From Clostridia bacterium (GTDB lineage Bacteria > Bacillota > Clostridia > Christensenellales > CAG-138): a DNA stretch of 64,000 bases. The notes beneath the pieces are model-generated. The model saw only the letters and a program-made list of their open reading frames with translations. It had not been told where the DNA came from and made no database searches. Of the stretch, positions 1,845 through 15,586 are shown one piece after another (within the stretch, counting starts at the first letter, position 1; each line of letters opens with the position of its first letter). The DNA lies in contig JAFXSG010000005.1 of assembly GCA_017525875.1 (NCBI GenBank), forward strand, positions 1 through 64,000, given 5' to 3'. Made by a program: the position numbers and the translations under genes.

Positions 1845-1885
1845 TCCAAGCAAAACAGCCCCCAAAAGGGGCTGTTTTGCTTGGA
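1845..1885. repeat. Perfect 18-bp hairpin built on the tRNA-Gly CCA end (1)
   Basis: The 18-base arms are fully complementary with a CAAAA loop. The right arm contains the TCCA end (minus strand) of the tRNA-Gly gene at 1882-1885. No T-run follows on the minus strand, so it is not a classical terminator. Confidence 0.8.
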
Positions 1886-1957
1886 GCGGGAAACGGGGCT
1901 CGAACCCGCCACCTCCGCCTTGGCAAGGCGGCGCTCTACCAAATGAGCTATTCCCGC
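1882..1957 (-). tRNA. tRNA-Gly(GCC), copy 1
   Basis: A 76-nt cloverleaf with encoded CCA, acceptor GCGGGAA/TTCCCGC, T-loop GGTTCGAGCCC and anticodon loop TTGCCAA. It is the last gene of the leftward tRNA cluster. Confidence 0.95.
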
Positions 1958-2048
1958 GTATTTAATTGTTTGACGGCAGGCTTGGGTAATGTGGCTCCGC
2001 CTTATCGCTCTGCGGCGAAAAACCCGGCCGCTAAGATCCGCGTCACCT

Positions 2049-2103
2049 GCGCGATTTCTTGACGCGGCATAAGGCTTCAAAGAAGCCGTTGCCTGGCTTC
2101 GAG
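2049..2103. repeat. 55-bp tRNA-spacer repeat, copy 2
   Basis: Exact second copy of 1776-1830. A further 34-base motif just upstream on the + strand (2005-2038, TCGCTCTGCGGCGAAAAACC) recurs with few changes at 2310-2343, so the whole spacer appears to have been duplicated with the tRNA genes. Confidence 0.85.
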
Positions 2104-2119
2104 TTCCCTTGATCGGGGT

Positions 2120-2161
2120 TCCATTACGGGAATGCTCCCAAATGAGTATTCCCGTAATGGA
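2120..2161. repeat. 18-bp hairpin built on the tRNA-Gly CCA end (2)
   Basis: The arms TCCATTACGGGAAT / ATTCCCGTAATGGA are extended by GCTC/GAGT around a CCAAAT loop. The sequence is unrelated to the hairpins at 1845 and 2396 but has the same length and the same position, and again includes TCCA. Confidence 0.8.
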
Positions 2162-2231
2162 GCGGGTAATGGGACTCGAACCCACTATCTCAGCTTGGAA
2201 GGCTAATGTGTTACCATTACACTATACCCGC
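2158..2231 (-). tRNA. tRNA-Gly(TCC)
   Basis: A 74-nt cloverleaf with acceptor GCGGGTA/TACCCGC, encoded CCA and anticodon stem-loop AGCCTTCCAAGCT. Confidence 0.95.
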
Positions 2232-2395
2232 ATTTTGGGACTGAGGCTTGGGAAACGGGGCTCCTTTTTCGCGCATCGAGTCTCGAAGTCGGCTCACACC
2301 GCCGCCTTCTCGCTCTGCGACGAAAAAGCCGGCCGCTAAAATCGCAACACTGTTGCGATTTCTTAACGCGGCTTCGATCCCCGCCTGATCAACTG

Positions 2396-2435
2396 CATTT
2401 TGCAAATACCCCGGTAAAGGGGTATTTGCAAAATG
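2396..2435. repeat. 17-bp hairpin built on the tRNA-Gly CCA end (3)
   Basis: The arms CATTTTGCAAATACCCC / GGGGTATTTGCAAAATG flank the loop GGTAAA. It directly abuts the next tRNA-Gly(GCC) and shares the CCA bases. It has no T-run. Confidence 0.8.
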
Positions 2436-2509
2436 GAGCGGGAAACGGGGCTCGAACCCGCCACCTCCGCCTTGGCAAGGCGGCGCTCTACCAAATGAGC
2501 TATTCCCGC
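2434..2509 (-). tRNA. tRNA-Gly(GCC), copy 2
   Basis: Identical in sequence to the copy at 1882-1957 over the tRNA body, with anticodon loop TTGCCAA and encoded CCA. Confidence 0.95.
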
Positions 2510-2534
2510 ATATTCAGTTTGTCAAGCTTCCGAG

Positions 2535-2619
2535 TGGTGCGGGCGAAGAGATTTGAACTCATACGCCCGGGGGCACCGGAACCTAAATCCGGCGCGTCTG
2601 CCAATTCCGCCACGCCCGC
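2535..2619 (-). tRNA. tRNA-Leu(TAG)
   Basis: An 85-nt class II tRNA with a long variable arm, acceptor GCGGGCG/CGCCCGC, anticodon loop ATTTAGG and encoded ACCA. Confidence 0.95.
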
Positions 2620-2637
2620 AATTGCCATTTGGAGAGC

Positions 2638-2713
2638 TGGTGACCCGTCGGAGATTCGAACTCCGGACACCTTGATTAAAAGTCAAGTGCTCTACCGACT
2701 GAGCTAACGGGTC
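2638..2713 (-). tRNA. tRNA-Lys(TTT)
   Basis: A 76-nt cloverleaf with acceptor GACCCGT, anticodon stem-loop CTTGACTTTTAATCAAG and encoded ACCA. Confidence 0.95.
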
Positions 2714-2718
2714 AAATC

Positions 2719-2793
2719 TGGCTGGGGTGGCAGGATTTGAACCTACGATGCGGGAGTCAAAGTCCCGTGCCTTGACCACTTGGCGACACCCCA
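2719..2793 (-). tRNA. tRNA-Gln(TTG)
   Basis: A 75-nt cloverleaf with acceptor TGGGGTG, anticodon stem-loop GGGACTTTGACTCCC and encoded GCCA. Confidence 0.95.
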
Positions 2794-2827
2794 CTGACTT
2801 CTCCCGTACGGCGGCTGTTTGAAAAAC

Positions 2828-2905
2828 TGGGGTGAGTGGTGGGGCTCGAACCCACGACCTCCAGAGCCACAATCTGGCATTCTAGCCAACTGAACTACAC
2901 CCACC
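2828..2905 (-). tRNA. tRNA-His(GTG)
   Basis: The cloverleaf has anticodon stem-loop CAGATTGTGGCTCTG. The 5' end is placed to include the extra G-1 typical of tRNA-His, opposite C73. CCA is encoded. Confidence 0.93.
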
Positions 2906-2927
2906 ATATTCAAATAGCCTGCAAAGA

Positions 2928-3004
2928 TGGCGCGCCTGCAGGGATTCGAACCCGGGACCTACGGCTTAGAAGGCCGTTGCTCTATCCTGCTGAGCTACAG
3001 GCGC
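2928..3004 (-). tRNA. tRNA-Arg(TCT)
   Basis: A 77-nt cloverleaf with acceptor GCGCCTG, anticodon stem-loop GGCCTTCTAAGCC and encoded GCCA. It is the first gene of the cluster. Confidence 0.95.
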
Positions 3005-3930: not shown

Positions 3931-4473
3931 TTAAGCCGCGGCGAAGAGCCCCATCGCGGAGCGGAGCGTGAGCAAAGCGTCCGCGACGGTGATCTCGCCG
4001 TCCAGGTCCACGTCCCCGGGCTTCGTGTCCGGCACCGTGACCTCAAAATCGATCGAGTACACGAGAAAATACGGGGCGTTCAGGCTCCAATAGGCCAAGT
4101 CGACGAGCTCGGCGTCCCCGTTGATAAGCACCGTGGGATGCTCCGGGAAGGTATAGCCGTCCTCGGGCCAGATCTCGAACTCCTGGTAGTACAGCGCGTT
4201 CGGGTCGTCGAAAACGGCTTCCTCGGAGACCCTTCCGACGTCGCCAGGGGTGTACAGCCACCAGGTGCTCCAGTCGATATAGTAATGCGCTCCGTCGGGC
4301 ACGCCGACATCGTAATCGGGATGCGCGCCGTATTCCGGAGCGGTGAAACCGAGTATCTCGATCGTGTCGATTACAAGGGGCTCCCCGTCCCGCGCGCTCT
4401 CAGCCGGTATCCCCGACGGCGCAAGGGCGAGCAGCATGGCGGCGACGGTCAATGCGATGATCCTTTTCAGCAT
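3931..4473 (-). CDS. Secreted protein with a C-terminal dockerin-type repeat
   Basis: This 180-residue protein starts at the ATG at 4473, which has AAGGAG about 7 bases upstream and gives a clean signal peptide (MLKRIIALTVAAMLL...). A longer frame upstream has no ribosome site. The mature part is aromatic-rich with no recognised fold. The last 25 residues, GDVDLDGEITVADALLTLRS, form one calcium-binding half of a type I dockerin, where two halves are normal. It may bind a cohesin or only calcium. Two other dockerin proteins occur in the window (5839 and 57029). Confidence 0.75.
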   Translation of the reverse strand: MLKRIIALTVAAMLLALAPSGIPAESARDGEPLVIDTIEILGFTAPEYGAHPDYDVGVPDGAHYYIDWSTWWLYTPGDVGRVSEEAVFDDPNALYYQEFEIWPEDGYTFPEHPTVLINGDAELVDLAYWSLNAPYFLVYSIDFEVTVPDTKPGDVDLDGEITVADALLTLRSAMGLFAAA

Positions 4474-4526
4474 GTTTTTCTCCTTGTGTTCTGTTTTCTC
4501 CGTTCCGCGCCGTGAGCGGACGCGGT

Positions 4527-5324
4527 TCATCTTTCCCTCAGCACCAAACGGATCGCGGCGCACTGCCATCTTTTCGGAAGGGCGTTCATAAGGAGGAGCA
4601 GCGGGTTGCGGTTCACGCAGTAGGTTAGACGCGGGCGTTTGGCGGAAAGGGCTTTAATGAGGAGCCCGGCGACCTTTTCCGGCGGTACCTTCCTCGCCTC
4701 CACGCGGTCCACGATCTCGCGGAAACGCTTCGAATTGCAGCGGTAGAGCTTCGTGTTTTCGCAGAACGCTTCGAGAGCGCGCGTGGAGTCGCCGATGAGC
4801 CCGGTGTCCACGGCGCCGGGACGCAGCTCGATGACCGGACGCCCGATGAGCTGAAGCTCCATCCTCAGCGAATCGGCAAAGCGCATCAGCGCCGCCTTGG
4901 TGACCGCGTAAACGCCGGTAAAAGGCAGTGGGTCGAGCGGCGCAAGCTCGCTCGTGACGATCACGGCCCTGCCGCCCGGTCGGAGCAGTGGCAGGAACTC
5001 GTGTACAACGCGCTGCACCGCGAAGAGATTGATGTTGAAGCAGCGGGCGAACCGCTCTTCCTCCATCTCAGCGAGGGAATCAAGGTCGTATATGCCCGCC
5101 ATGCTGACGATCGCGTCCGCGCCGCCTGCTTCCTTTTGCACGGTCTCCGCCGCCGCTTTTACCGCCGCGCCGTCCGTGAGGTCGGTTTCGATAAAGCGCA
5201 GGCCGGGAAGCGCAGGAGGCTCCCGCCTGTCCAGCGCGAAGACGGTCCAGCCCTCGCCGATAAGTTTTTTCGCGCAGGCAAGGCCCATGCCGCCCGCCGC
5301 CCCTGTAAGGATCGCAGTTTTCAT
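4527..5324 (-). CDS. Short-chain dehydrogenase/reductase
   Basis: This 265-residue classical SDR has the nucleotide motif TGAAGGMG near the N-terminus, a core near SMAGIY (a variant of NAG), and the catalytic pair YAVTK. It probably uses NAD(P)H to reduce or oxidise a small alcohol or ketone in the cytoplasm. ATG at 5324 is chosen because AAAGGA precedes it and it begins the beta strand before the glycine motif. A TATAAT box on the minus strand (5356-5361) lies about 30 bases upstream, without a clear -35. The substrate cannot be told from sequence. Confidence 0.85.
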   Translation of the reverse strand: MKTAILTGAAGGMGLACAKKLIGEGWTVFALDRREPPALPGLRFIETDLTDGAAVKAAAETVQKEAGGADAIVSMAGIYDLDSLAEMEEERFARCFNINLFAVQRVVHEFLPLLRPGGRAVIVTSELAPLDPLPFTGVYAVTKAALMRFADSLRMELQLIGRPVIELRPGAVDTGLIGDSTRALEAFCENTKLYRCNSKRFREIVDRVEARKVPPEKVAGLLIKALSAKRPRLTYCVNRNPLLLLMNALPKRWQCAAIRLVLRER

Positions 5325-5544: not shown

Positions 5545-5573
5545 TTGACAAAGATGGCCGCAAATGTTATAAT
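5545..5573 (+). promoter_or_regulatory. Consensus promoter of the B12 operon
   Basis: TTGACA (5545-5550), 17 bases, TATAAT (5568-5573), immediately ahead of the riboswitch. Confidence 0.9.
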
Positions 5574-5577
5574 TTTG

Positions 5578-5777
5578 TGTTGCAGGGATGCACGGTCCGG
5601 CTTAGGCCGGCCAACAGGGAATGCGGTGTGAATCCGCAGCAGTCCCCGCTACTGTGATCGAAGACGAAAGCCCCAAACCGCCACTTTGCACAAGGCCGGC
5701 GCCGCGAGGCGCGGGAAGCATGGGAAGGCGGGGCCGTAGATTGACGCGAGAGCCAGGAGACCTGCCGTGCTGCCCCT
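5578..5777 (+). promoter_or_regulatory. Cobalamin riboswitch
   Basis: The leader contains the conserved cobalamin-aptamer core GGGAATGCGGTGTGAATCCG followed by GCAGTCCCCGCTACTGTGAT, and ends with the B12 box GAGCCAGGAGACCTGCC. The 5' part (TGCAGGGATGCACGG) can pair with the 3' end (CCGTGCTGCCCC). Bound cobalamin should switch off expression of the downstream surface proteins and transporter. The switch ends about 45 bases before the ribosome site of the first gene; no separate terminator is obvious, so control may be at translation. Confidence 0.92.
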
Positions 5778-5838
5778 AAAGCCGCGAAAAGCGGCGCGGT
5801 TTGCAGGACCGAGAATAATTACACGGAGGTATGTAAAA

Positions 5839-6843
5839 ATGAAACTCTGCAAAAAACTGATGGCAGTCCTTTTCGCTGCCGCCCTTCTCTTCACCTTGCT
5901 CGCGGTCCCCGCAGCGGCGGAAAGCCGCACCCCCGAGGTCCCCGAAGGCTATGACGGTTTCGTCGTCATGAGCGTTGAGGCGCTGCCCCTCGGCTTCGAC
6001 TATCTTATCATGCCCACTTACGTTCCCTTCCACGAGGGTGAGTCCGTGGCTGAGGTCACGGTCCGTCTTTTTGAGGAAGCCGGGCTCAGCTACAGCGCAG
6101 GCGATATCGAGAGCTTCAATCTGACTTCTGTCGAGTGGCCCTACCTCGACATGCTGACTCCCCGCGTCCCCGACTACCTCATGGAGCAGCTCATCGAGAA
6201 CTACTGCTATGACGAGGAAGAGGGTTGGGATCAGCCCGAACCCACCGGCAATATGCTTGCAGCCGGCAATTACACCTATTATTCCGGTTGGATGATCGCC
6301 GAGAACGACGAGATCACTCCCGTGGGCGCTGCCGAAGTCACCGCGGTCGAGGGCAACGTCTACCGTTGGATGTACTCCATCTACGGCTACGGCATGGACA
6401 TTGGCATGAGCGACGGCTGGGGCATGTTCCCGGAGTTCGAGAACCCGGCGATGGGCGTTCAGCGCAGCGACGCGTACACTATCCTTGCCGAGATCCTCTC
6501 CGATCCGGATCTTCAGAATACCATCTTAAACGACGATGAGCTCTACTCCATCTACAGCGAGTTCTATAACACCATCGCGTACCAGGGTTCCACTCAGGAG
6601 GAGATCGACGCGGTCACCATGGCCCTTATCGAAGCGCTGATTAGCGACTGGACCCTTATGGGCGACGTTGACCTTGACGGCGAGATCACCATCTCCGACT
6701 CCCTGCTCATCATGCGCCATGCGATGGGCCTTATCGCCCTTGACGGCGACGCTCTCGAGGCCGCTGACTACGATGAAAGCGGCGAGATCGACGTGACCGA
6801 CGCGCTGCTCGTCATGCGCGTTTCCATGGGCCTTGCCGACTGA
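5839..6843 (+). CDS. Secreted DUF4430 (transcobalamin C-domain-like) protein with a dockerin
   Basis: This 334-residue protein starts at 5839 with GGAGGT 8 bases upstream and has a clear signal peptide cut after PAAAES. Two segments resemble DUF4430, the family related to the C-terminal domain of transcobalamin and intrinsic factor: HEGESVAEVTVRLFEEAGL (mature N-terminal third) and YYSGWMIAENDEITPVG...YRWMYSIYGYG (middle). The last 60 residues form a complete type I dockerin with two calcium loops, GDVDLDGEITISDSL and ADYDESGEIDVTDAL. It is the first gene after the B12 riboswitch, so a role in capturing cobalamin outside the cell is inferred. The dockerin may tether it to a cohesin on the cell surface. 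Confidence 0.75.
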   Translation: MKLCKKLMAVLFAAALLFTLLAVPAAAESRTPEVPEGYDGFVVMSVEALPLGFDYLIMPTYVPFHEGESVAEVTVRLFEEAGLSYSAGDIESFNLTSVEWPYLDMLTPRVPDYLMEQLIENYCYDEEEGWDQPEPTGNMLAAGNYTYYSGWMIAENDEITPVGAAEVTAVEGNVYRWMYSIYGYGMDIGMSDGWGMFPEFENPAMGVQRSDAYTILAEILSDPDLQNTILNDDELYSIYSEFYNTIAYQGSTQEEIDAVTMALIEALISDWTLMGDVDLDGEITISDSLLIMRHAMGLIALDGDALEAADYDESGEIDVTDALLVMRVSMGLAD

Positions 6844-6850
6844 ACACAGC

Positions 6851-6895
6851 GGGGCGGCCGTTCCATACTGCACGGAGCGGCTGCCCCTCTTTTTT
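6851..6895 (+). terminator. Strong hairpin terminator inside the B12 operon
   Basis: GGGGCGGCCGTTCC / GGAGCGGCTGCCCC followed by TCTTTTTT. It lies between the first and second genes, so later genes need read-through or another promoter. Confidence 0.85.
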
Positions 6896-6900
6896 GAACC

Positions 6901-8316
6901 ATGAGAGCAAAACGCAGCCTTTTAAGCGCAATCCTAATACTGCTTGCCTTTGCCCTTGCGCTCGCGCCCTGCCTTCCCGCCCGGGCCGCCGGCGGGTACA
7001 GCTCCGCATACAGTGCGGTGCTCAATCACCTGCAGTCCGGCTCCGCGCCGCAGTTCGGTTCGATAGGCGGCGAATGGAAGGTCATCGCCCTCGCAAGGAG
7101 CGGCCGCATCACTCCCCAGAGCAGCTACGCCGGGGACTATTACACACGCATCGAACAGATGGCCGCGTCGAACGGCTCGAACGTTCTCGACCCGAACCGA
7201 TCCACGGACAACTCCCGTCTGATCCTAGCGCTGACCGCGATCGGCAGGGACGCACGGGACGTTGCCGGGTATGATCTCACCGCCCCGCTCTCCGATCTCA
7301 GCTACGTCAAGCGCCAGGGCGTGAACGGCGCCGTCTTCGCGCTGCTCGCGCTCGATTGCAATTCCGCATACGGAATGGATCAGGCAAAGCAGGCCTGCGT
7401 CGACTTTATCCTCTCCCGTGAGATCGCGGGCGGCGGCTGGGCGCTTGCGGGAGCGAACCCCGACCCGGACGTCACCTCGATGGCGATCACAGCGCTTTCA
7501 CGCCAAAGCGGCGCTTCCGCGGCCGTGGGCCGCGGCATAGACGCCCTATCCCGCATCCAGAACGAGGACGGAGGTTTCTCCTCGATGGGAACGGCGAACT
7601 GCGAAAGCTGCGCCCAGGTGCTGCTTGCGCTCGCATCCGCGGGCGTGAACGGCGCTTCGGACAGCCGCTTCGTTAAGAGCGGCGGCTCCGTTCTCGACGC
7701 GCTGCTCCGCTATTTCACCGGCAGCGGCTTTGCGCACACGGCGGGCGGCGGCGTCAACGCGATGGCGAGCGAGCAGGCGGCCTACTGCCTCTGCGGCTAC
7801 GACCGCTTAATGCACGGCCGCGATCCGCTTTTCAACATGAACGACGTGAGCTTTATAAACAGCTCGCCTACCCCCGTGCCGACCGCGGCGCCGACGGCAA
7901 CGCCGAGACCTACGCCCACGCCAACGCCGAAGCCCACAGCGACCCCCGCGCCGACGGCGGTACCTACGGCCGCACCGACCGAAGCTCCGACGGAGTCGGC
8001 GGAGATCGAGCCGCCCTCCGAAGAGCCCACGGGAGCGTCGACGGAAGCGCCGGCGACTCCCGCAGCGCCTATCACTCCCTTTGAAGAGCCCACGGAGGAC
8101 GCGGAGCCGACGGCAGTGCCCGAAGTGCCTACCGAAACGCCTGCCGAAACTCCCGCGCCCACGCCCGAAACGACGTATTATCCGCCCACGGACGGGGACG
8201 GCATGTACCACCGCCCGAACCGTGCGCCGTACTATATCGCGGGCGCAGCCCTGCTGCTCGGCTCGGCGGCAGCGGCGTTCATCCTGATCAGGAAGCATAA
8301 AAACACACGAAAATGA
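6901..8316 (+). CDS. Membrane-anchored alpha/alpha-toroid protein (intrinsic-factor N-domain-like)
   Basis: This 471-residue protein has a signal peptide (to about residue 30, ending PARAAG), then a helical domain (about 35-310) with repeats of prenyltransferase/terpene-cyclase toroid type (VTSMAITALSRQ, IDALSRIQNEDGGFSSMG, CAQVLLALASAG). A Pro/Thr-rich stalk follows (about 318-435), then one membrane helix (about 443-463) and a basic tail. The same toroid fold forms the N-terminal domain of animal cobalamin carriers. The ATG lies 5 bases after a terminator and has no Shine-Dalgarno site. The 4-base overlap with the next gene and the operon context suggest an outward-facing B12 receptor; this is inference. 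Confidence 0.72.
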   Translation: MRAKRSLLSAILILLAFALALAPCLPARAAGGYSSAYSAVLNHLQSGSAPQFGSIGGEWKVIALARSGRITPQSSYAGDYYTRIEQMAASNGSNVLDPNRSTDNSRLILALTAIGRDARDVAGYDLTAPLSDLSYVKRQGVNGAVFALLALDCNSAYGMDQAKQACVDFILSREIAGGGWALAGANPDPDVTSMAITALSRQSGASAAVGRGIDALSRIQNEDGGFSSMGTANCESCAQVLLALASAGVNGASDSRFVKSGGSVLDALLRYFTGSGFAHTAGGGVNAMASEQAAYCLCGYDRLMHGRDPLFNMNDVSFINSSPTPVPTAAPTATPRPTPTPTPKPTATPAPTAVPTAAPTEAPTESAEIEPPSEEPTGASTEAPATPAAPITPFEEPTEDAEPTAVPEVPTETPAETPAPTPETTYYPPTDGDGMYHRPNRAPYYIAGAALLLGSAAAAFILIRKHKNTRK

Positions 8317-8834
8317 AACCGTTTTTCAACATAACGATCAAAGTGTTCGTCCGCGCCGGCGCGCTGCTGCTCGCCTGCCTGCTGCTCGTTTTCGCCGCCT
8401 GTGCCGCGCCGAAGCCCGCCGAGGGCAAGCTCCGGTGCACGCTCGAGATCGAGTGCAAGACGATCCTCGACAATATGGACGACTTAAACGCGGACAAGCT
8501 CGAGGTCCTGCCCGAGGACGGCGTGCTGCTCAAAAAATGCACGGTGTATTTCGATGAGGGCGACAGCGTGTACGACATGCTCGTGCGCGAGACCCGCGCG
8601 CGCGGCATCCACATGGAAGCCAGCTACACCCCGGTCTATGAAAGCGCGTATATCGAAGGCATAGGCAATCTCTATGAATTCGACTGCGGCGAGGGCAGCG
8701 GCTGGATGTACAGCGTGAACGGCGAGTTCCCGAACTACGGAACGAGCAAATACGAGCTTCACGACGGCGATGAGGTAGCGTTCCGCTACACCTGCGATTT
8801 TGGAGCCGACGTCGGCGGGCTGATGGGCAGCTGA
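8313..8834 (+). CDS. DUF4430 lipoprotein (transcobalamin C-domain-like)
   Basis: This 173-residue protein has a signal peptide and the lipobox VFAAC. The mature part carries DUF4430 hallmarks: DEGDSVYDMLVRETRARGI and GSGWMYSVNGEFPNYG followed by LHDGDEVAFRYT. The start overlaps the toroid gene by 4 bases (ATGA), so translation is coupled. In animal carriers, cobalamin is held between a toroid and a domain of this type. Here they are on separate anchored proteins encoded side by side. Confidence 0.8.
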   Translation: MKPFFNITIKVFVRAGALLLACLLLVFAACAAPKPAEGKLRCTLEIECKTILDNMDDLNADKLEVLPEDGVLLKKCTVYFDEGDSVYDMLVRETRARGIHMEASYTPVYESAYIEGIGNLYEFDCGEGSGWMYSVNGEFPNYGTSKYELHDGDEVAFRYTCDFGADVGGLMGS

Positions 8835-8859
8835 AGCGGGGCTCTCCCCGTTTGATGAT

Positions 8860-9768
8860 TTGAAGGATACCGAACTCAACAACCGATCCGCATTCAGCGC
8901 GGTGCATCCCGTGGCCGCGCTGCTTTTCTTTGCGTTCGCACTCGTGATGCCGATGCTGCTTTTACACCCCGTACTGCTCGGCATTTCGTTCGCGGCGGCG
9001 GTCGTATGGTCGTTCCTGCTCCGCGGGAAAAAGCAGCTCGGCTTTTTGCTCAAATTCGTGCTGCCCGTGATGCTGCTCTCGGCCCTTTTGAACCCGGTAT
9101 TCAACCACGCGGGCGTGACGGTGCTGTTCTACCTGCGCTACAACCCCGTAACGCTGGAGGCCGTGCTCTACGGCCTCGCCTCCGCGCTGATGCTCGGGGC
9201 GGTCATCACCTGGTTCACCTGCTTCAACGCGATATTCACGAGCGATAAGCTCATTTATCTCACCGGGCGGCTGATGCCGTCCCTCGCTCTCGTCATATCC
9301 ATGGCGCTCCGCTTCGTGCCGCTGTTCACTCGGCAGGCAAAGCGCATCGCTCTCGCACGGCGCGGCGCGGGTATGGGCACGACCGGCGGGAACGTCATCG
9401 AGCGGGCGAAGAACGGGCTTTCTATCCTATCGGCACTCATCACCTGGTCGCTCGAAAGCTCTGTCACCACGGCGGATTCCATGCGCGCACGCGGCTACGG
9501 GCTGCACCCGCGCACGAGCTTTTCAAACTACCGCTTCGACGGGCGGGACGCGGCTATACTTCTCTTCACCGCGCTCGGCGCGGGCTGTTCCGGCCTCGCC
9601 GCCGGCTTCGGCGCGGCGTCCGTCCGCTTCTTCCCCTCCTATAAAATAAACGCATGCTCCCCGCTGTTCATCCTGTACGCTGTGCTTTACGCGGCAGTGC
9701 TCCTGCTGCCTGCCGCGCTCGAACTCTACGAGGCTCACAAATGGCATTCATCGATATCAAAGATCTGA
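8860..9768 (+). CDS. ecfT: ECF transporter transmembrane component EcfT
   Basis: This 302-residue polytopic membrane protein has a hydrophobic N-terminal half, a coupling region with RRGAGMGTTGG, and the EcfT signature ADSMRARGYG, where the Ala-Arg-Gly motif contacts the ATPases. The start is TTG at 8860; no good ribosome site is seen. It links the S component to the ATPase dimer in energy-coupling-factor vitamin transporters. It overlaps the next gene by 28 bases. Confidence 0.88.
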   Translation: MKDTELNNRSAFSAVHPVAALLFFAFALVMPMLLLHPVLLGISFAAAVVWSFLLRGKKQLGFLLKFVLPVMLLSALLNPVFNHAGVTVLFYLRYNPVTLEAVLYGLASALMLGAVITWFTCFNAIFTSDKLIYLTGRLMPSLALVISMALRFVPLFTRQAKRIALARRGAGMGTTGGNVIERAKNGLSILSALITWSLESSVTTADSMRARGYGLHPRTSFSNYRFDGRDAAILLFTALGAGCSGLAAGFGAASVRFFPSYKINACSPLFILYAVLYAAVLLLPAALELYEAHKWHSSISKI

Positions 9769-11402
9769 GTTTCACCTATCCGGAGGCGAAGTCCCCCGCC
9801 CTTTCGCACGTTGACCTCTCGATCGGAGAGGGCGAGTTCGTGCTGGTCGCGGGGCCTTCGGGCTGCGGCAAATCGACGCTGCTCAAGCATCTCAAGCCCT
9901 CGCTCGCCCCGTTCGGGACCGTGAGCGGCAGCGTAAAGTTTATGGGCAGACCGGTGGATGAGCTCGATCTTCGCCGCGAAAGCCGCGAGATCGGCTTCGT
10001 GATGCAGGACCCGGAGATGCAGATCGTGACGGACAAGGTCTGGCACGAGCTGGCGTTCGGGCTTGAAAGCCTCGGCACCGGCGTGACCGAGATGCGCGTG
10101 CGCATCGCGGAGACCGCCAATTTCTTCGGCATCGGCAAATGGATGGAGAGCGATTGCGCGAGCCTCTCCGGCGGGCAGAAGCAGCTGCTTCTGCTTGCCG
10201 CCGTGACCGCAATGCAGCCCAGATTGCTGCTGCTTGACGAACCGACCTCCCAGCTCGATCCGGTCGCTGCCTCGGAGTTTTTCGACACTTTGAGGCGCAT
10301 CAATCAGGAGCTCGGCACCACGGTCATCGTCACCGAGCACCGCACCGAAGGCCTGTTCCCGATCGCGGACCGCGTCGTTTTCATGCGGGAGGGCGGCGTC
10401 GTGTTCTCCGGCACACCGCGCGAGGCGGCGTCGCTCATAGAAAAGGACCCCTCCTTCACCGCCGTACTGCCCGCCGCGATGACCGTTTTCGCAAAGACCC
10501 GCGGGCAGGAGCCGCTTTCATCCTCCCCGCTGACCGTCCGCGAGGGCATGCAGTACCTTAAAGCAAGGCTCGGGGGCGAAAGATTGAGCATCCCCTCCCC
10601 GGCGCCTCAGAAGCACGAAAAGAAACAGCCCGTGATCGCGATGCGCGGCGCGTGGTTCCGCTATTCGAAGAACGGCGCGGACATCCTCAAGGGGACGGAC
10701 CTTGACGTCCTCCCCGGCGAGCTGCTTGCCGTGATCGGCGGTAACGGCGAGGGCAAGACCACCGCGCTCATGGCCGCGAGCGGCATGTATAAGCCTTACC
10801 GCGGCAAGGTGCTTTTGAACGGAAAGCCCATCTCATCCGTCCCGGAAGGCGAGCGCTACGGCAAAACGATCGGCGTGCTGCTGCAGAATCCGCTGCTCGG
10901 CTTCACCCGTGACAGCATCCGCGAGGAGCTCGAGGCCGTGCGCAAAAGGTTCAGATTATCCGAGGAAAGAGTGGCCGAGGTCGTCGAACTGATGGAGCTT
11001 TCGCCCATCCTCGACAGCAATCCGTACGACGTCAGCGGCGGCGAGGTGCAGCGCGCGGCGATAGCGAAGCTACTGCTTCCCTCCCCCTCCGTGCTGTTTC
11101 TCGACGAGGCCACGAAGGGCATGGACGCCTTCTTCAAGCTGCGCTTCGGCGCGCTCCTAAGAAAACTGACCGCGCTCGGGACGGCAATAGTGCTCGTTTC
11201 ACACGACATAGAGTTCTGCGCGGAATACGCGGACCGCGTGGCGATGTTCGCTCTGGGCGGCGTGATCGCGGAGGGCAGCCCGAGGACGGTGCTCGGCGGG
11301 AACAGCTTCTACACCACCGCGGCGGCGCGCATCGCGCGGGGAAGCATCGAGAACGTGCTTACGGCGGAGGATATCGTCTCCCTGATAGAGAAAAAAGCTT
11401 GA
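9741..11402 (+). CDS. ecfA: Fused ECF transporter ATPase (EcfA-EcfA')
   Basis: This 553-residue protein has two ABC ATPase domains in one chain. The first has Walker A GPSGCGKST (about residue 38), signature LSGGQKQ and Walker B LLLLDEPTSQLD. The second has Walker A GGNGEGKTT, a variant signature VSGGEVQRA and Walker B VLFLDEATKGMD. Each keeps a C-terminal histidine switch (TEHRTEG and VSHDIEF). ATG at 9741 is chosen over an upstream in-frame Met because it starts the first beta strand and has GAGG 8 bases before it. It should power B12 import together with EcfT. Confidence 0.9.
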   Translation: MAFIDIKDLSFTYPEAKSPALSHVDLSIGEGEFVLVAGPSGCGKSTLLKHLKPSLAPFGTVSGSVKFMGRPVDELDLRRESREIGFVMQDPEMQIVTDKVWHELAFGLESLGTGVTEMRVRIAETANFFGIGKWMESDCASLSGGQKQLLLLAAVTAMQPRLLLLDEPTSQLDPVAASEFFDTLRRINQELGTTVIVTEHRTEGLFPIADRVVFMREGGVVFSGTPREAASLIEKDPSFTAVLPAAMTVFAKTRGQEPLSSSPLTVREGMQYLKARLGGERLSIPSPAPQKHEKKQPVIAMRGAWFRYSKNGADILKGTDLDVLPGELLAVIGGNGEGKTTALMAASGMYKPYRGKVLLNGKPISSVPEGERYGKTIGVLLQNPLLGFTRDSIREELEAVRKRFRLSEERVAEVVELMELSPILDSNPYDVSGGEVQRAAIAKLLLPSPSVLFLDEATKGMDAFFKLRFGALLRKLTALGTAIVLVSHDIEFCAEYADRVAMFALGGVIAEGSPRTVLGGNSFYTTAAARIARGSIENVLTAEDIVSLIEKKA

Positions 11403-12157
11403 GTTACGAACAGGCACAACCGGATATTTCGCCCGTGAGCAGGCGGGAAGAGGGGCGCAGGAAGCTCAGGCGGCTCGTCTTTGCCGTGTGCGTGCTGGTG
11501 TTCGTTCCGTCCGTGATCGCGATCGGGCTCTCCGCTTGGGAGGACCGGAAATACTATCTCGTTTCCGCGCTGATCATCCTCGTGTCCGCACTGCCGTTCT
11601 TCATCGCGTTTGAAAAGCGCCGCCCGCTCGCGCGGGAGCTGACGCTGATCGCGGTCATGACGGCGCTCGGCGTTGCGGGGCGCGCTGCTTTCTATATGCT
11701 GCCCCAGTTCAAGCCCATCGCGGCCATCGTCATCGTGGCGGGCTGCGCGTTCGGGTGCGAGGCGGGCTTCATCGTTGGCGCGCTCACGATCTTCGTTTCC
11801 AACATGTTCTTCGGCCAGGGGCCGTGGACGCCGTGGCAGATGTTCGCGCTCGGGCTCGTGGGCTTTTTCGCGGGACTCATCTTCCGCGGGGAGATCAAAA
11901 CGAAGCTCCGTCTGTTCCTCCTCTGCCTGTACGGCGCCGTTTCCGTGCTCGTCGTCTACGGCGGTATCGTGGACACCTCGTTCGTGTTCACCTCGGCGCA
12001 GGAGGTCACGGCCGCGAGCTTCCTTGCGGCATACGCCTCCGGCTTCGTCTTTAACCTGATCTTCGCCGGGGCGACGGTGCTGTTTTTGCTGATACTCGCA
12101 AAGCCATTATTGAATAAATTAAGCCGAATAAAGAAAAAACACGGCGTGTTCAGGTGA
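11399..12157 (+). CDS. ECF transporter S component, probably for cobalamin
   Basis: This 252-residue membrane protein starts at TTG, overlapping the ATPase stop by 4 bases. It has about eight hydrophobic segments and the S-component stretch SNMFFGQGPWTPWQMFALG with a preceding ELTLIAVMTALGVAGRAAF. This resembles the CbrT/CblT group tied to cobalamin. The riboswitch supports B12 as substrate, but the sequence alone does not prove it. It is the last gene of the operon. Confidence 0.8.
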   Translation: MSYEQAQPDISPVSRREEGRRKLRRLVFAVCVLVFVPSVIAIGLSAWEDRKYYLVSALIILVSALPFFIAFEKRRPLARELTLIAVMTALGVAGRAAFYMLPQFKPIAAIVIVAGCAFGCEAGFIVGALTIFVSNMFFGQGPWTPWQMFALGLVGFFAGLIFRGEIKTKLRLFLLCLYGAVSVLVVYGGIVDTSFVFTSAQEVTAASFLAAYASGFVFNLIFAGATVLFLLILAKPLLNKLSRIKKKHGVFR

Positions 12158-12167
12158 ACACCGTGCA

Positions 12168-12201
12168 TGAAAAAAGCCGGGTGCTTCGCGCTCCCGGCTT
12201 T
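12168..12201. terminator. Terminator shared by convergent genes
   Basis: The stem AGCCGGG...CCCGGCT is flanked by A6 on the left and TTTC on the right. It serves the minus-strand gene best, where six T follow. A second palindrome (CACGGCGTGTTC / GAACACCGTG) overlaps the S-component stop. Confidence 0.8.
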
Positions 12202-13592: not shown

Positions 13593-14228
13593 TTATTCCT
13601 CCTCCGTGAGGAGCGCGGAGAGCTTCTTTCGCACCCTCTGCAGGGCGTTGTCGACCGCCTTCGGGCTCCTTTGGAGCTCCTCCGCGATGCGCTTGTAGCT
13701 CATGCCGTTCAAAGCCCGGGTGAGCGCCTGCATCTCGAGCTCCGTCAGCCTTGCGGTGAGGCGCTGAGTGAAGTCCTGCTCCCGCTCCCGCTTGATCGCA
13801 AGCTCCTCCGGATTGACCGCGGAGGGGATGTTCAGCCTTTCCCCGAAGGTATCGGAATCCTTGTCGCTTGAATCGATCGGTTTGTCGAGCGATAAGGAAT
13901 CATTGAGCGGGTTGTGCTTTTTCCTTGCGGCGCGCTTGATCGCGGCGAAGACGTTGTTGGTGATGCATACGTCCGCATAGGCGCGGAAGCCGACGCCCCG
14001 CTCCGCGTCGAAATCGCGTATCGCGCTGCACAGACCGATGGACCCCTCCTGAACGAGGTCCTCGTTTTCCGCGCCGATCATGAAATACGGGAAGCTGCGC
14101 CTTTCGACGAGCGGCATGAAGCGGCCCACGAGCAAGCGCTCCGCCTCCGTGTCGCCGCCCTGCGCGAGAAAAACGAGCTGTTCGTCGCTCATGGCGCCGT
14201 AATTCGGTTCGGGTCCCTCTCCGGTCAT
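13593..14228 (-). CDS. sigH: RNA polymerase sigma factor SigH (Spo0H type)
   Basis: This 211-residue protein has sigma-70 region 2 (EDLVQEGSIGLCSAIRDFD...GVGFRAYADVCITNNV) and region 4 (LTELEMQALTRALNGMSYKRIAEELQRSPKAVDNALQRVRKKL). Length, motif order and position after mrnC-rlmB match SigH, which directs transition-phase and early sporulation genes. Its ATG overlaps the rlmB stop by 4 bases. An internal ATG (MSDEQLVFLAQ, about 14192) is an alternative start. Confidence 0.92.
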   Translation of the reverse strand: MTGEGPEPNYGAMSDEQLVFLAQGGDTEAERLLVGRFMPLVERRSFPYFMIGAENEDLVQEGSIGLCSAIRDFDAERGVGFRAYADVCITNNVFAAIKRAARKKHNPLNDSLSLDKPIDSSDKDSDTFGERLNIPSAVNPEELAIKREREQDFTQRLTARLTELEMQALTRALNGMSYKRIAEELQRSPKAVDNALQRVRKKLSALLTEEE

Positions 14229-15586
14229 TCGCTGATTCCGTCCTGCCTGTTCTTTTCAAACATGATTATCGCCGCCGCGACCGCCGCGTTCAGCGAATCG
14301 ATGCTGCCCTTGAGGGGGATCGAGACGAGGAAATCGCATTTTTCGCGAACGAGCTTCGAGAGCCCGTCGCCCTCGCCGCCGACGACAAGCGCGAAAGCGC
14401 CCTTCATATCGGTCTCGTGCATGCTCCTGCCGGCCATATCCGCGCCGGCGATCCAGAGCCCCGCGGCCTTGAGCTGCTCCATCGCGGAAACGATGTTCAC
14501 GACCCTCGCGATGCGCATATGCTCCGCCGCGCCTGCGGAGGTCTTCACGACCGCCGCGGTGACGGGCGCGGAACGCCGCTTGGGGATCACGACGCCGTGC
14601 GCGCCGGCGCACTCCGCGCTCCTGATGATGGAGCCGAGGTTATGGGGATCCTCTATGCCGTCCAGCAGGATCACGAAGGGCTTTTCGCCCTTTTCCTCCG
14701 CGTAGGCGAGGATGTCCGAAATCTCCGAATACTCCACGCCGGGGATCTCCGCGACGATGCCCTGATGGTTGCCGCTCTTGCCGTCGTGGCCGAAGGGCAT
14801 GCAGAGTTCGTCCAGCTTATACCTGTCCACCTCGCGGATGATCAGATTGCGGTCCTTCGCAAGGCCGATGATCTCGCCGAGGGAGCCGTCGTGCTCCTTC
14901 GTGACGAGGATGCGGTCGATGCTCCTGCCGCTTTTGATCGCTTCCTTGACCGGGTTCCTGCCCATTATGATGTTCGGCAGCTCCTCGGGGGCCTGCTGAC
15001 GCTCCTCTGGCATTTCGCTCCTGCGGTCGAAATCGGGCCTGCGGTCGAATCTGCGCTCGCCGCGGTCGAAGCCGGGCTTGTCGCCGAACTTTCTTTCGCC
15101 GTAGGGCTTGCCGCCGAATTTGCGCTCGCTGCGGTCGAAGTTGGGCTTGCCCTCAAATTTCCTTTCGCCGTAGGGCTTGTCGCCGAATCTGCGCTCGCCG
15201 CGGTCGAAGCCGGGCTTGTCGCCGAACTTTCTTTCGCCGTAGGGCTTGTCGCCGAATTTGCGCTCGCCGCGGTCAAAGCCGGGCCTGTCGCCTAACTTTC
15301 TTTCGCCGTAGGGCTTGTCGCCGAAGGGCTTATCACCCCTGCGGTCGAAGTTGGGCTTATCGCCGAACTTTCTTTCGCCGTAGGGCTTGTCGCCGAATTT
15401 GCGCTCGCCGCGGTCGAAGTTGGGCTTATCGCCGAACTTTCTTTCGCCGTAGGGCTTGCTGCCAAAGGGCTTATCACCCCTGCGGTCGAAGCCGGGCTTG
15501 TCCCCGAATTTGCCGCCGAAGGGCTTGCCGTCGAACTTGCCCCTGCCGCCCTGTTTCCTGCCGTTTTTGTTGTTGAAGTCTGCCAT
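14225..15586 (-). CDS. rlmB: 23S rRNA 2'-O-methyltransferase RlmB family, with a repeat-rich basic N-terminal tail
   Basis: This 453-residue protein has a C-terminal SpoU/TrmH methyltransferase (about 205-453): substrate-binding start NIIMGRNPVKEAIKSGRS, SAM-binding knot ILLDGIEDPHNLGSIIRSAE, VVGGEGDGLSKLV and SIPLKGSIDSLNAAVAAAI. This enzyme class methylates G2251 in 23S rRNA. The first 200 residues are unusual: about a dozen degenerate repeats of KPYGERKFGDKPGFDRGER. RlmB is normally about 245 residues. The tail is very basic and presumably disordered, as in RNA chaperones. It lies between mrnC and sigH. Confidence 0.9.
   Translation of the reverse strand: MADFNNKNGRKQGGRGKFDGKPFGGKFGDKPGFDRRGDKPFGSKPYGERKFGDKPNFDRGERKFGDKPYGERKFGDKPNFDRRGDKPFGDKPYGERKLGDRPGFDRGERKFGDKPYGERKFGDKPGFDRGERRFGDKPYGERKFEGKPNFDRSERKFGGKPYGERKFGDKPGFDRGERRFDRRPDFDRRSEMPEERQQAPEELPNIIMGRNPVKEAIKSGRSIDRILVTKEHDGSLGEIIGLAKDRNLIIREVDRYKLDELCMPFGHDGKSGNHQGIVAEIPGVEYSEISDILAYAEEKGEKPFVILLDGIEDPHNLGSIIRSAECAGAHGVVIPKRRSAPVTAAVVKTSAGAAEHMRIARVVNIVSAMEQLKAAGLWIAGADMAGRSMHETDMKGAFALVVGGEGDGLSKLVREKCDFLVSIPLKGSIDSLNAAVAAAIIMFEKNRQDGISE
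15030..15530. repeat. Coding tandem repeat in rlmB
   Basis: About 500 bp of imperfect repeats, with unit motifs CTTTCTTTCGCCGTAGGGCT and TTGCGCTCGCCGCGGTCGAA alternating on the + strand. The period varies between about 36 and 66 bases, which should favour slippage or recombination. Confidence 0.85.

What the first reader, a model, noticed from the sequence alone, without database searches (positions are those of the whole stretch)
5545..12157. Riboswitch-controlled B12 uptake operon whose outer proteins look like a split intrinsic factor
Seen: a perfect promoter, a cobalamin riboswitch, a DUF4430-dockerin secreted protein, a stalked membrane protein with an alpha/alpha toroid, a DUF4430 lipoprotein, then EcfT, fused EcfA-EcfA' and an S component. 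Known: animal intrinsic factor and transcobalamin are a toroid plus a C-domain related to DUF4430, with B12 between them. Inference: this bacterium captures B12 on its surface with the same two folds on separate anchored chains and hands it to an ECF importer. A dockerin-bearing third part could add a releasable or complex-bound scavenger.
Basis: partly seen in the sequence, partly recalled or inferred. Interest (0 to 1): 0.88.

Follow-up and report, generated by a model that had tools for sequence, protein, structure and literature searches.

The report
Dockerin-bearing surface vitamin B12 uptake operon
A gut bacterium has a vitamin-B12-controlled set of genes that most likely catches B12 outside the cell with the two kinds of domain that make up our own B12 carriers, here on separate proteins, and hands it to a membrane importer; the idea itself was proposed in 2007, but the link to the bacterium's fibre-digesting surface machinery looks new.

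Summary
A consensus promoter and a strong cobalamin riboswitch (5576-5783) precede six co-directional genes: a DUF4430-dockerin protein, a toroid-stalk-membrane protein, a DUF4430 lipoprotein, EcfT, fused EcfA-EcfA' and an S component whose only significant solved relative is from the B12 transporter ECF-CbrT. The set is conserved: 24 of 27 neighbourhoods fetched from the bacterium's own family have a cobalamin riboswitch at the locus. Natural fusions join toroid and DUF4430 in one chain. A broad DUF4430 profile finds transcobalamins as its best solved relatives, though weakly (E 0.006-0.007). The central idea was published as a prediction in 2007 (Burroughs et al.). What I did not find in print is the dockerin: this protein and 21 of 21 orthologues carry one, in genomes that nearly always encode cohesins, so part of the B12 capture gear is probably docked on a cellulosome-like surface. 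Binding is untested. Against a simple scavenging picture, this genome also carries a corrin-synthesis operon, and one close relative lacks the riboswitch.

The parts
5545..5573 (+). sigma-70-type promoter, TTGACA-17-TATAAT with extended TG
   Evidence: 12 of 12 consensus positions
5576..5783 (+). cobalamin riboswitch aptamer (RF00174)
   Evidence: 117.9 bits, E 6e-29; found at the locus in 24 of 27 fetched family neighbourhoods
5839..6843 (+). P0001: secreted protein with divergent DUF4430 (SLBB) domain carrying an insertion, and C-terminal type I dockerin (residues 275-327)
   Evidence: hhalign E 6e-20 to the P0003 family; dockerin in P0001 and 21 of 21 orthologues
6901..8316 (+). P0002: alpha/alpha toroid (about residues 30-318), P/T-rich stalk, C-terminal transmembrane segment
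8313..8834 (+). P0003: DUF4430 (SLBB) lipoprotein
   Evidence: E 3e-18; lipobox
8860..9768 (+). P0004: EcfT (CbiQ type)
9741..11402 (+). P0005: fused EcfA-EcfA' ATPases
11399..12157 (+). P0006: ECF S component, CbrT-like
   Evidence: 6fnp_A, E 2e-11 over residues 74-249
12176..12198 (.). GC-rich hairpin with flanking A and T runs, likely bidirectional terminator at the end of the operon
   Evidence: read directly; the scan did not list it (loop longer than its limit)

Best explanation
A cobalamin-riboswitch-controlled uptake system for B12 or related corrinoids. When intracellular cobalamin is low the operon is on. Outside the membrane, DUF4430 (SLBB beta-grasp) domains bind the corrinoid first, and the toroid of P0002, held on a stalk in the membrane, closes over it, as the beta and alpha domains of transcobalamin do. 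The membrane-proximal pair P0002 plus lipoprotein P0003 passes the ligand to the CbrT-like S component P0006, and EcfT with the fused EcfAA' drives import. P0001, a DUF4430 domain on a dockerin, sits on cohesin proteins of the cell's cellulosome-like surface and widens the catch. Shown: riboswitch, gene set, domain identities, conservation, natural fusions, cohesins in the genome. Inferred: corrinoid binding, the two-chain sandwich, the hand-over, the docking of P0001.
For: Riboswitch at the locus in 24 of 27 fetched family neighbourhoods; in a wider set, my riboswitch model at E <= 0.01 lies upstream on the same strand in 55 of 80 loci, or 38 of the 48 with at least 5 kb upstream. EcfT, EcfAA' and S all within the fetched locus in 52 of 80, or 47 of the 59 with at least 7 kb downstream. 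S component closest to the B12 transporter ECF-CbrT (identity of 6FNP from PMC5997447). In genus g23 the S component is present in 11 of 11 genomes with the toroid orthologue and 0 of 2 without. A broad DUF4430 profile hits transcobalamin-1 and -2 first. Toroid and DUF4430 in one ORF in 34 of 89 toroid ORFs, including toroid then DUF4430 as in transcobalamin (L101, L136). In transcobalamin, Cbl binds the beta domain first, the alpha domain then closes, and isolated domains bind Cbl (PMC11107200 passages), so a two-chain version is feasible. Dockerin in P0001 and 21 of 21 orthologues, 61 dockerin and 13 cohesin matches in this genome, one cohesin protein with stalk and C-terminal membrane segment (L152).
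Against: No binding data and no structure. The toroid shows no detected kinship to PF01122, and its sequence points to squalene-hopene cyclase. The DUF4430-transcobalamin hits are weak (the third hit of that search, E 0.056, is an unrelated collagen chain), and the narrower P0003 profile found none. This genome has a riboswitch-flanked corrin-synthesis and BtuCDF-like locus, so need for uptake is not obvious. L045 lacks the riboswitch; in genus g23 the importer lies elsewhere and none of 9 importer loci has a cobalamin riboswitch. Of 9 weak loci of the wider set rechecked with Rfam, 5 fail its cut-off, 4 of them counted among the 55. Divergent toroid loci L059 and L062 and the second DUF4430 protein of this genome (L064) have no riboswitch. 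G031 has the dockerin but no cohesin was found.
Confidence: 0.78

Rival explanations
1. Same architecture, but the preferred ligand is not B12 itself: cobinamide, another corrinoid, or a lower-ligand precursor salvaged to complete the cell's own synthesis.
For: The genome encodes corrin synthesis enzymes (CbiA-type, CbiC, CbiD, CbiG, two methylases, CbiK) at a locus with two riboswitches. ECF-CbrT also transports cobinamide (PMC5997447 passages). Burroughs et al. and a reviewer left ligand range open (PMC1796856).
Against: The S component resembles CbrT, a cobalamin transporter; a cobalamin riboswitch controls the set.
Confidence: 0.2
2. No sandwich: P0003 alone is the substrate-binding lipoprotein of the ECF importer, while the toroid of P0002 does something else (spacer, carbohydrate or wall binding).
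For: The toroid's sequence relatives are squalene-hopene cyclases and prenyltransferases, not PF01122. The transcobalamin beta domain alone binds Cbl (PMC5599065 passages).
Against: Toroid and DUF4430 are in one ORF in 34 of 89 toroid ORFs and stay adjacent in genus g23 where the importer lies elsewhere.
Confidence: 0.17
3. P0001 is a cellulosomal or surface protein whose DUF4430 domain has lost corrinoid binding; it rides in the operon for another reason.
For: Its DUF4430 is divergent with a long insertion, and of 22 proteins of this type only one is recognised by the Pfam DUF4430 model at E <= 0.001.
Against: It is the first gene behind the riboswitch and conserved there; relatives of its N-domain are fused N-terminally to the toroid.
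Confidence: 0.25
4. The riboswitch and the surface genes are a chance neighbourhood; the toroid and DUF4430 proteins serve fibre digestion.
For: The dockerin and the rumen or gut origin of many relatives.
Against: Riboswitch linkage recurs in Paenibacillus, Ureibacillus and Ruminococcus bromii, with SLH domains or dockerins on the surface proteins.
Confidence: 0.03

Closest known systems
SLBB superfamily, transcobalamin-like clade of low-GC Gram-positive bacteria (Burroughs et al. 2007, PMC1796856)
   Same: Secreted SLBB (DUF4430) domains with alpha/alpha toroid, a second SLBB protein, CbiO and CbiQ genes, proposed B12 scavenging.
   Different: Here toroid and SLBB are on separate chains, one SLBB protein carries a dockerin, a cobalamin riboswitch leads the operon and the S component is CbrT-like; the paper's main text has no occurrence of riboswitch, dockerin, cohesin or lipoprotein (its supplements were not seen). 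It reports that such bacteria usually lack key B12 synthesis enzymes, whereas this genome has several of them.
ECF-CbrT of Lactobacillus delbrueckii (PMC5997447; PDB 6FNP)
   Same: S component related at E 2e-11; EcfT and EcfA proteins.
   Different: The main text of that paper has no occurrence of 'lipoprotein', and its ECF module is shared among eight predicted S components; here the module is dedicated by position.
Transcobalamin, intrinsic factor, haptocorrin of animals
   Same: Toroid plus beta-grasp domain; DUF4430 profile hits the beta domain of transcobalamin-1 and -2.
   Different: Single soluble chain with the PF01122 toroid (recalled); here separate anchored chains, toroid not recognised as PF01122.
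'Additional lipoprotein component of putative cobalamin ECF transporter' (annotation in a table, Lacticaseibacillus rhamnosus, PMC9963975)
   Same: A lipoprotein linked by annotation to a cobalamin ECF transporter; the same paper mentions a DUF4430 protein encoded beside rtpR.
   Different: Annotation only; whether it is the DUF4430 type of P0003 was not tested.
BtuB/BtuG and BtuF systems (recalled; only BtuCDF appears in passages read)
   Same: Extracytoplasmic B12 capture before membrane transport.
   Different: Unrelated binding proteins and transporters; Gram-negative outer membrane in the BtuB/BtuG case.

Membership tests
Cobalamin riboswitch RF00174 | Score above the curated cut-off over the whole model | tested here: met
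   117.9 bits against 31.5, model positions 1-189
Transcobalamin-like SLBB clade (DUF4430, PF14478) | P0003 scores above the family cut-off | tested here: met
   66.4 bits against 23.8
Transcobalamin-like SLBB clade (DUF4430, PF14478) | P0001 N-domain homologous to DUF4430 | tested here: met
   Pfam missed it; hhalign probability 99.2, E 6e-20
Transcobalamin-like SLBB clade (DUF4430, PF14478) | Detectable kinship to the transcobalamin beta domain | tested here: met
   Broad profile A8: 4kki E 0.0062, 5no0 E 0.0074, best two hits, weak; narrow P0003 profile A7 found none
Transcobalamin-like SLBB clade (DUF4430, PF14478) | Beta-grasp fold with extra beta-hairpin after the helix | not testable with these tools
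   Structure prediction switched off
Eukaryotic cobalamin-binding protein (PF01122: transcobalamin, intrinsic factor) | Toroid matches PF01122 | tested here: not met
   Not among the 25 of 33 families shown for 62 toroids; 0 of 13 genomes with a match over cut-off
Eukaryotic cobalamin-binding protein (PF01122: transcobalamin, intrinsic factor) | Toroid followed by beta domain in one chain | tested here: not met
   Separate genes in the window; that order in one chain occurs in relatives such as L101 and L136
ECF transporter for cobalamin (CbrT type) | EcfT, two EcfA domains and an S component present | tested here: met
ECF transporter for cobalamin (CbrT type) | S component related to CbrT | tested here: met
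   6fnp_A E 2e-11; that chain A is CbrT is inferred from its length and label
ECF transporter for cobalamin (CbrT type) | ATP-dependent cobalamin uptake | not testable with these tools
   needs experiment
Cellulosomal dockerin protein | Type I dockerin above cut-off | tested here: met
   31.2 bits against 22.9; P0001 and 21 of 21 orthologues match at E <= 0.001
Cellulosomal dockerin protein | Cohesins in the same genome | tested here: met
   13 matches; 21 of 22 relatives' genomes searched, G031 none
Cellulosomal dockerin protein | Physical cohesin-dockerin binding | not testable with these tools
   needs experiment

The most novel reading that the evidence does not exclude
A cellulosome-like surface with its own vitamin arm: a dockerin-borne, riboswitch-controlled SLBB protein plugs into cohesins and, with a separate stalked toroid and a lipoprotein, forms a two-chain transcobalamin-like clamp that feeds a CbrT-type importer. 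In one relative (L058) the B12-type protein carries a cohesin and a dockerin of its own, so such assemblies could be polymeric.
Probability: 0.45. Interest if true: 0.72.

Novelty: new variant of a known kind. Interest (0 to 1): 0.52.

Why it matters
B12 competition is thought to shape gut communities (recalled), and animals have been proposed to have gained their B12 carriers from bacteria of this kind (PMC1796856). These loci give testable bacterial counterparts in which the two carrier domains are separate chains, with relatives in named isolates such as Ruminococcus bromii and Paenibacillus, and they suggest that fibre-degrading surface complexes may also gather a vitamin.

Tried and rejected
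Structure prediction of a natural toroid-DUF4430 fusion and of the window toroid could not be run, so fold searches were not possible. Searches of single proteins against solved structures gave no transcobalamin hit for P0002 or P0003; the P0003-type profile gave none either; only the broader profile A8 did. A8 holds the window domain and 30 of the 44 dereplicated domains; I left out 14, largely the insertion-bearing P0001 type. PF01122 in 13 genomes: two weak matches (E 0.34 and 2.3), both below cut-off. An alignment mixing toroid-only and DUF4430-only rows (A3) misaligned the DUF4430 rows and was not used. The RNA fold of the leader is no more stable than shuffles (z -1.1) and says nothing about the expression platform. 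The nhmmer riboswitch scan (48 of 80 loci) was replaced by a covariance model. An earlier count said 20 of 20 riboswitches; the calls show 19 of 20, corrected in entry 12. Considered and rejected: chance neighbourhood; P0001 as a plain cellulase accessory.

Counts and rows dropped: one search used riboswitch matches at E <= 0.01 on the toroid's strand, which drops L083 (E 0.022) and two minus-strand matches in L132 and L133; accepted distances from riboswitch to toroid ORF run from 57 to 6966 bases, and the ECF parts were counted anywhere in the locus on either strand. Of 9 loci rechecked by Rfam, 4 (L073, L076, L085, L097) pass its cut-off and 5 (L075, L077, L082, L083, L084) do not; L075, L077, L082 and L084 are nevertheless among the 55. 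Other riboswitches seen in fetched loci were a SAM riboswitch in L082 and a THF riboswitch in L181, neither in front of the module. In one search L059, L040, L042 and L051 were left out of the alignment (L059 after the error); R1 left out the riboswitches of L042 and L043. One search took the window protein and 68 of 89 toroid ORFs (those up to 1000 residues); one search took 35 of the 65 other listed ORFs, and 7 of its members are P0001 orthologues, so most of its 9 dockerins are those. In one search, 2 of the 34 ORFs have the DUF4430 domain only between toroid copies; ORFs cut at contig ends may hide further fusions.

Papers: PMC1796856: abstract, section 7 (part 1 of 2) and section 10, passages of others. 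PMC5997447, PMC3766115, PMC4350170, PMC9963975, PMC5599065, PMC11107200: passages only. PMC10117117: its text was searched for two terms, no passage shown. PMC1949818 and the others: search listing only. 'Not found in print' for dockerin with cobalamin riboswitch rests (0 papers), for the wider theme; subscription papers are largely outside the library.


Full report
What is there. A promoter that matches the consensus at 12 of 12 positions (5545-5573) stands directly before a cobalamin riboswitch aptamer (5576-5783, RF00174, 117.9 bits). Six co-directional genes follow with short gaps or overlaps, ending before a GC-rich hairpin at 12176-12198 that I read from the sequence. The products are P0001 (signal-like start, DUF4430-like N-domain, dockerin), P0002 (toroid, P/T stalk, membrane segment), P0003 (DUF4430 lipoprotein), P0004 (EcfT), P0005 (two ECF ATPase domains fused) and P0006 (S component).

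P0001 does carry a DUF4430 domain. Pfam finds only the dockerin. A profile of 14 P0001-type N-domains matches the profile of 31 P0003-type domains with probability 99.2 and E 6e-20 over 105 columns. The P0001 type has a long insertion between the two halves.

Conservation. In a family-wide search, 95 of 103 genomes gave matches, but by my reading of the table most are the low-complexity stalk; toroid matches cover 25 genomes besides this one. I fetched 27 neighbourhoods from these 25. Of 20 close orthologues (L036-L055), 19 have RF00174 over its cut-off in front of the set; L045 has none, and a promoter stands there directly before the ribosome-binding site. Of the other seven, L056, L057, L058, L060 and L061 have it, L059 and L062 do not. 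That makes 24 of 27. This genome has three such sites in 2.49 Mb. P0001, P0002 and P0003 stay together, as far as the contigs reach; in genus g23 the ECF genes are not beside them. There, a P0006 relative exists in 11 of 11 genomes with the toroid orthologue and in 0 of 2 without it; in the nine of these genomes whose importer locus I fetched, EcfT, EcfAA' and S form a cassette with no cobalamin riboswitch. So in that genus the surface genes, not the importer, have the riboswitch (except G088, which is L045).

Wider spread. With a covariance model built from 26 riboswitches, 55 of 80 loci have a riboswitch upstream on the same strand at E <= 0.01, 38 of the 48 with at least 5 kb upstream; 52 of 80 hold all three ECF parts, 47 of the 59 with at least 7 kb downstream; 63 of 80 have a separate P0003-type protein. 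Eight of these 80 are contigs already in the first set. Of nine weak loci rechecked, four pass Rfam's cut-off.

Toroid and DUF4430 belong together. Of 89 toroid ORFs, 34 hold a DUF4430-like domain in the same frame: on the N-side only in 22, the C-side only in 7, both in 3, and in 2 only between toroid copies. L136 fuses a P0002-like and a P0003-like protein through the membrane segment and lipobox. L101 (Ureibacillus) has toroid then DUF4430 then SLH domains in one chain, the order of transcobalamin.

Relation to animal B12 carriers. A broad DUF4430 profile finds transcobalamin-1 (4kki, E 0.0062) and transcobalamin-2 (5no0, E 0.0074) as its best solved relatives, over nearly the whole domain, with the family's conserved Trp and Tyr aligned to Trp and Tyr in both; next come a collagen chain (E 0.056, unrelated), a Ruminococcus protein 3u7z (E 0.097) and full-length transcobalamin-2 (E 0.12). 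The hits are weak, and the narrower profile gives none. The toroid behaves otherwise: its best solved relatives are squalene-hopene cyclases (E 2e-16), 61 of 62 members match SQHop_cyclase_C at E <= 1, and PF01122 does not appear among the families shown. So a toroid fold is well supported, a specific kinship to the transcobalamin toroid is not.

Ligand. The riboswitch family senses cobalamin. P0006 has one significant solved relative, 6fnp_A (E 2e-11), from the vitamin B12 transporter ECF-CbrT, which also takes cobinamide (PMC5997447, passages). Three B12-binding-domain matches lie in this genome. Against simple auxotrophy, the genome has a riboswitch-flanked locus with CbiK, a BtuF-like binding protein, FecCD permease, an ATPase and CbiA-type, CbiC, CbiD, CbiG and two corrin-methylase-family proteins.

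The dockerin. P0001 and all 21 orthologues examined carry a type I dockerin. This genome has 61 dockerin and 13 cohesin matches, and one cohesin protein (L152) with a stalk and C-terminal membrane segment like that of P0002. Cohesins occur in 21 of 22 relatives' genomes searched; G031, whose P0001 has a dockerin, shows none. Elsewhere the surface proteins carry SLH domains (23 of 69 toroid ORFs, 20 of 35 other ORFs) or dockerins (21 of 69; 9 of 35, most of these being P0001 orthologues). L058 carries a cohesin and a dockerin besides DUF4430 and toroid. I take P0001 to be docked on surface cohesins; this is inference.

Mechanism. In transcobalamin, cobalamin binds the beta domain first, the alpha domain then closes, association needs cobalamin, and isolated domains bind it (PMC11107200 passages). 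A two-chain version is therefore feasible: P0003 (and P0001) as first binders, P0002 as lid, P0006 as receiver. None of these steps is shown for these proteins.

What was known. Burroughs et al. 2007 defined the SLBB superfamily, described bacterial SLBB proteins joined to alpha/alpha toroids on either side, operons with a second SLBB protein, CbiO and CbiQ, proposed B12 scavenging, and proposed transfer of the toroid-SLBB protein to animals. The paper's main text has no occurrence of riboswitch, dockerin, cohesin or lipoprotein, and my library search for dockerin with cobalamin and riboswitch found no paper. New here, as far as these searches reach, are the riboswitch numbers, the CbrT-like S component, the split arrangement with a stalked toroid, and the dockerin link.

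Verdict. Real, conserved, and most likely a surface B12 or corrinoid capture and import system; a variant of a predicted kind, with a probable cellulosome link as its most unusual feature. Interest is moderate because the core idea is known, though in what I read I saw no experimental test of it in bacteria.

Noticed in passing
window 3931-4569 (-): Small secreted protein P0007 upstream of the operon ends in a single dockerin-like half (GDVDLDGEITVADALLTLRSAMG); Pfam finds no family in it.
   Followed up: no
window 1885-3004 (-): Cluster of eight tRNA genes; tRNAs also lie near the orthologous operon in some relatives (L038, L053).
   Followed up: no
window 14225-15586 (-): Protein with an N-terminal run of repeats of the type FGDKPYGERK before a domain that looks like an RNA methyltransferase (the latter from recall).
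   Followed up: no
L064:6817-7503 (own genome): A second DUF4430 lipoprotein, near a dockerin protein and a stalked protein, without cobalamin riboswitch: DUF4430 may have another ligand there.
   Followed up: partly
L063 (own genome): Two divergent cobalamin riboswitches between a CbiK/BtuF-like side and a FecCD/ABC/Cbi operon.
   Followed up: partly
L058:6228-8819: DUF4430, cohesin, toroid and dockerin in one 863-residue protein behind a cobalamin riboswitch.
   Followed up: partly
L121:315-2574: Three cobalamin riboswitches in a row, with two small DUF4430-like ORFs of 138 residues between them.
   Followed up: no
L045:10489-10560: No riboswitch in one orthologue; a promoter stands directly before the ribosome-binding site.
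   Followed up: yes
L073:7966-10044: In Ruminococcus bromii the DUF4430-toroid protein itself ends in a dockerin, so an organism known (from recall) for its amylosome may carry the same system.
   Followed up: partly
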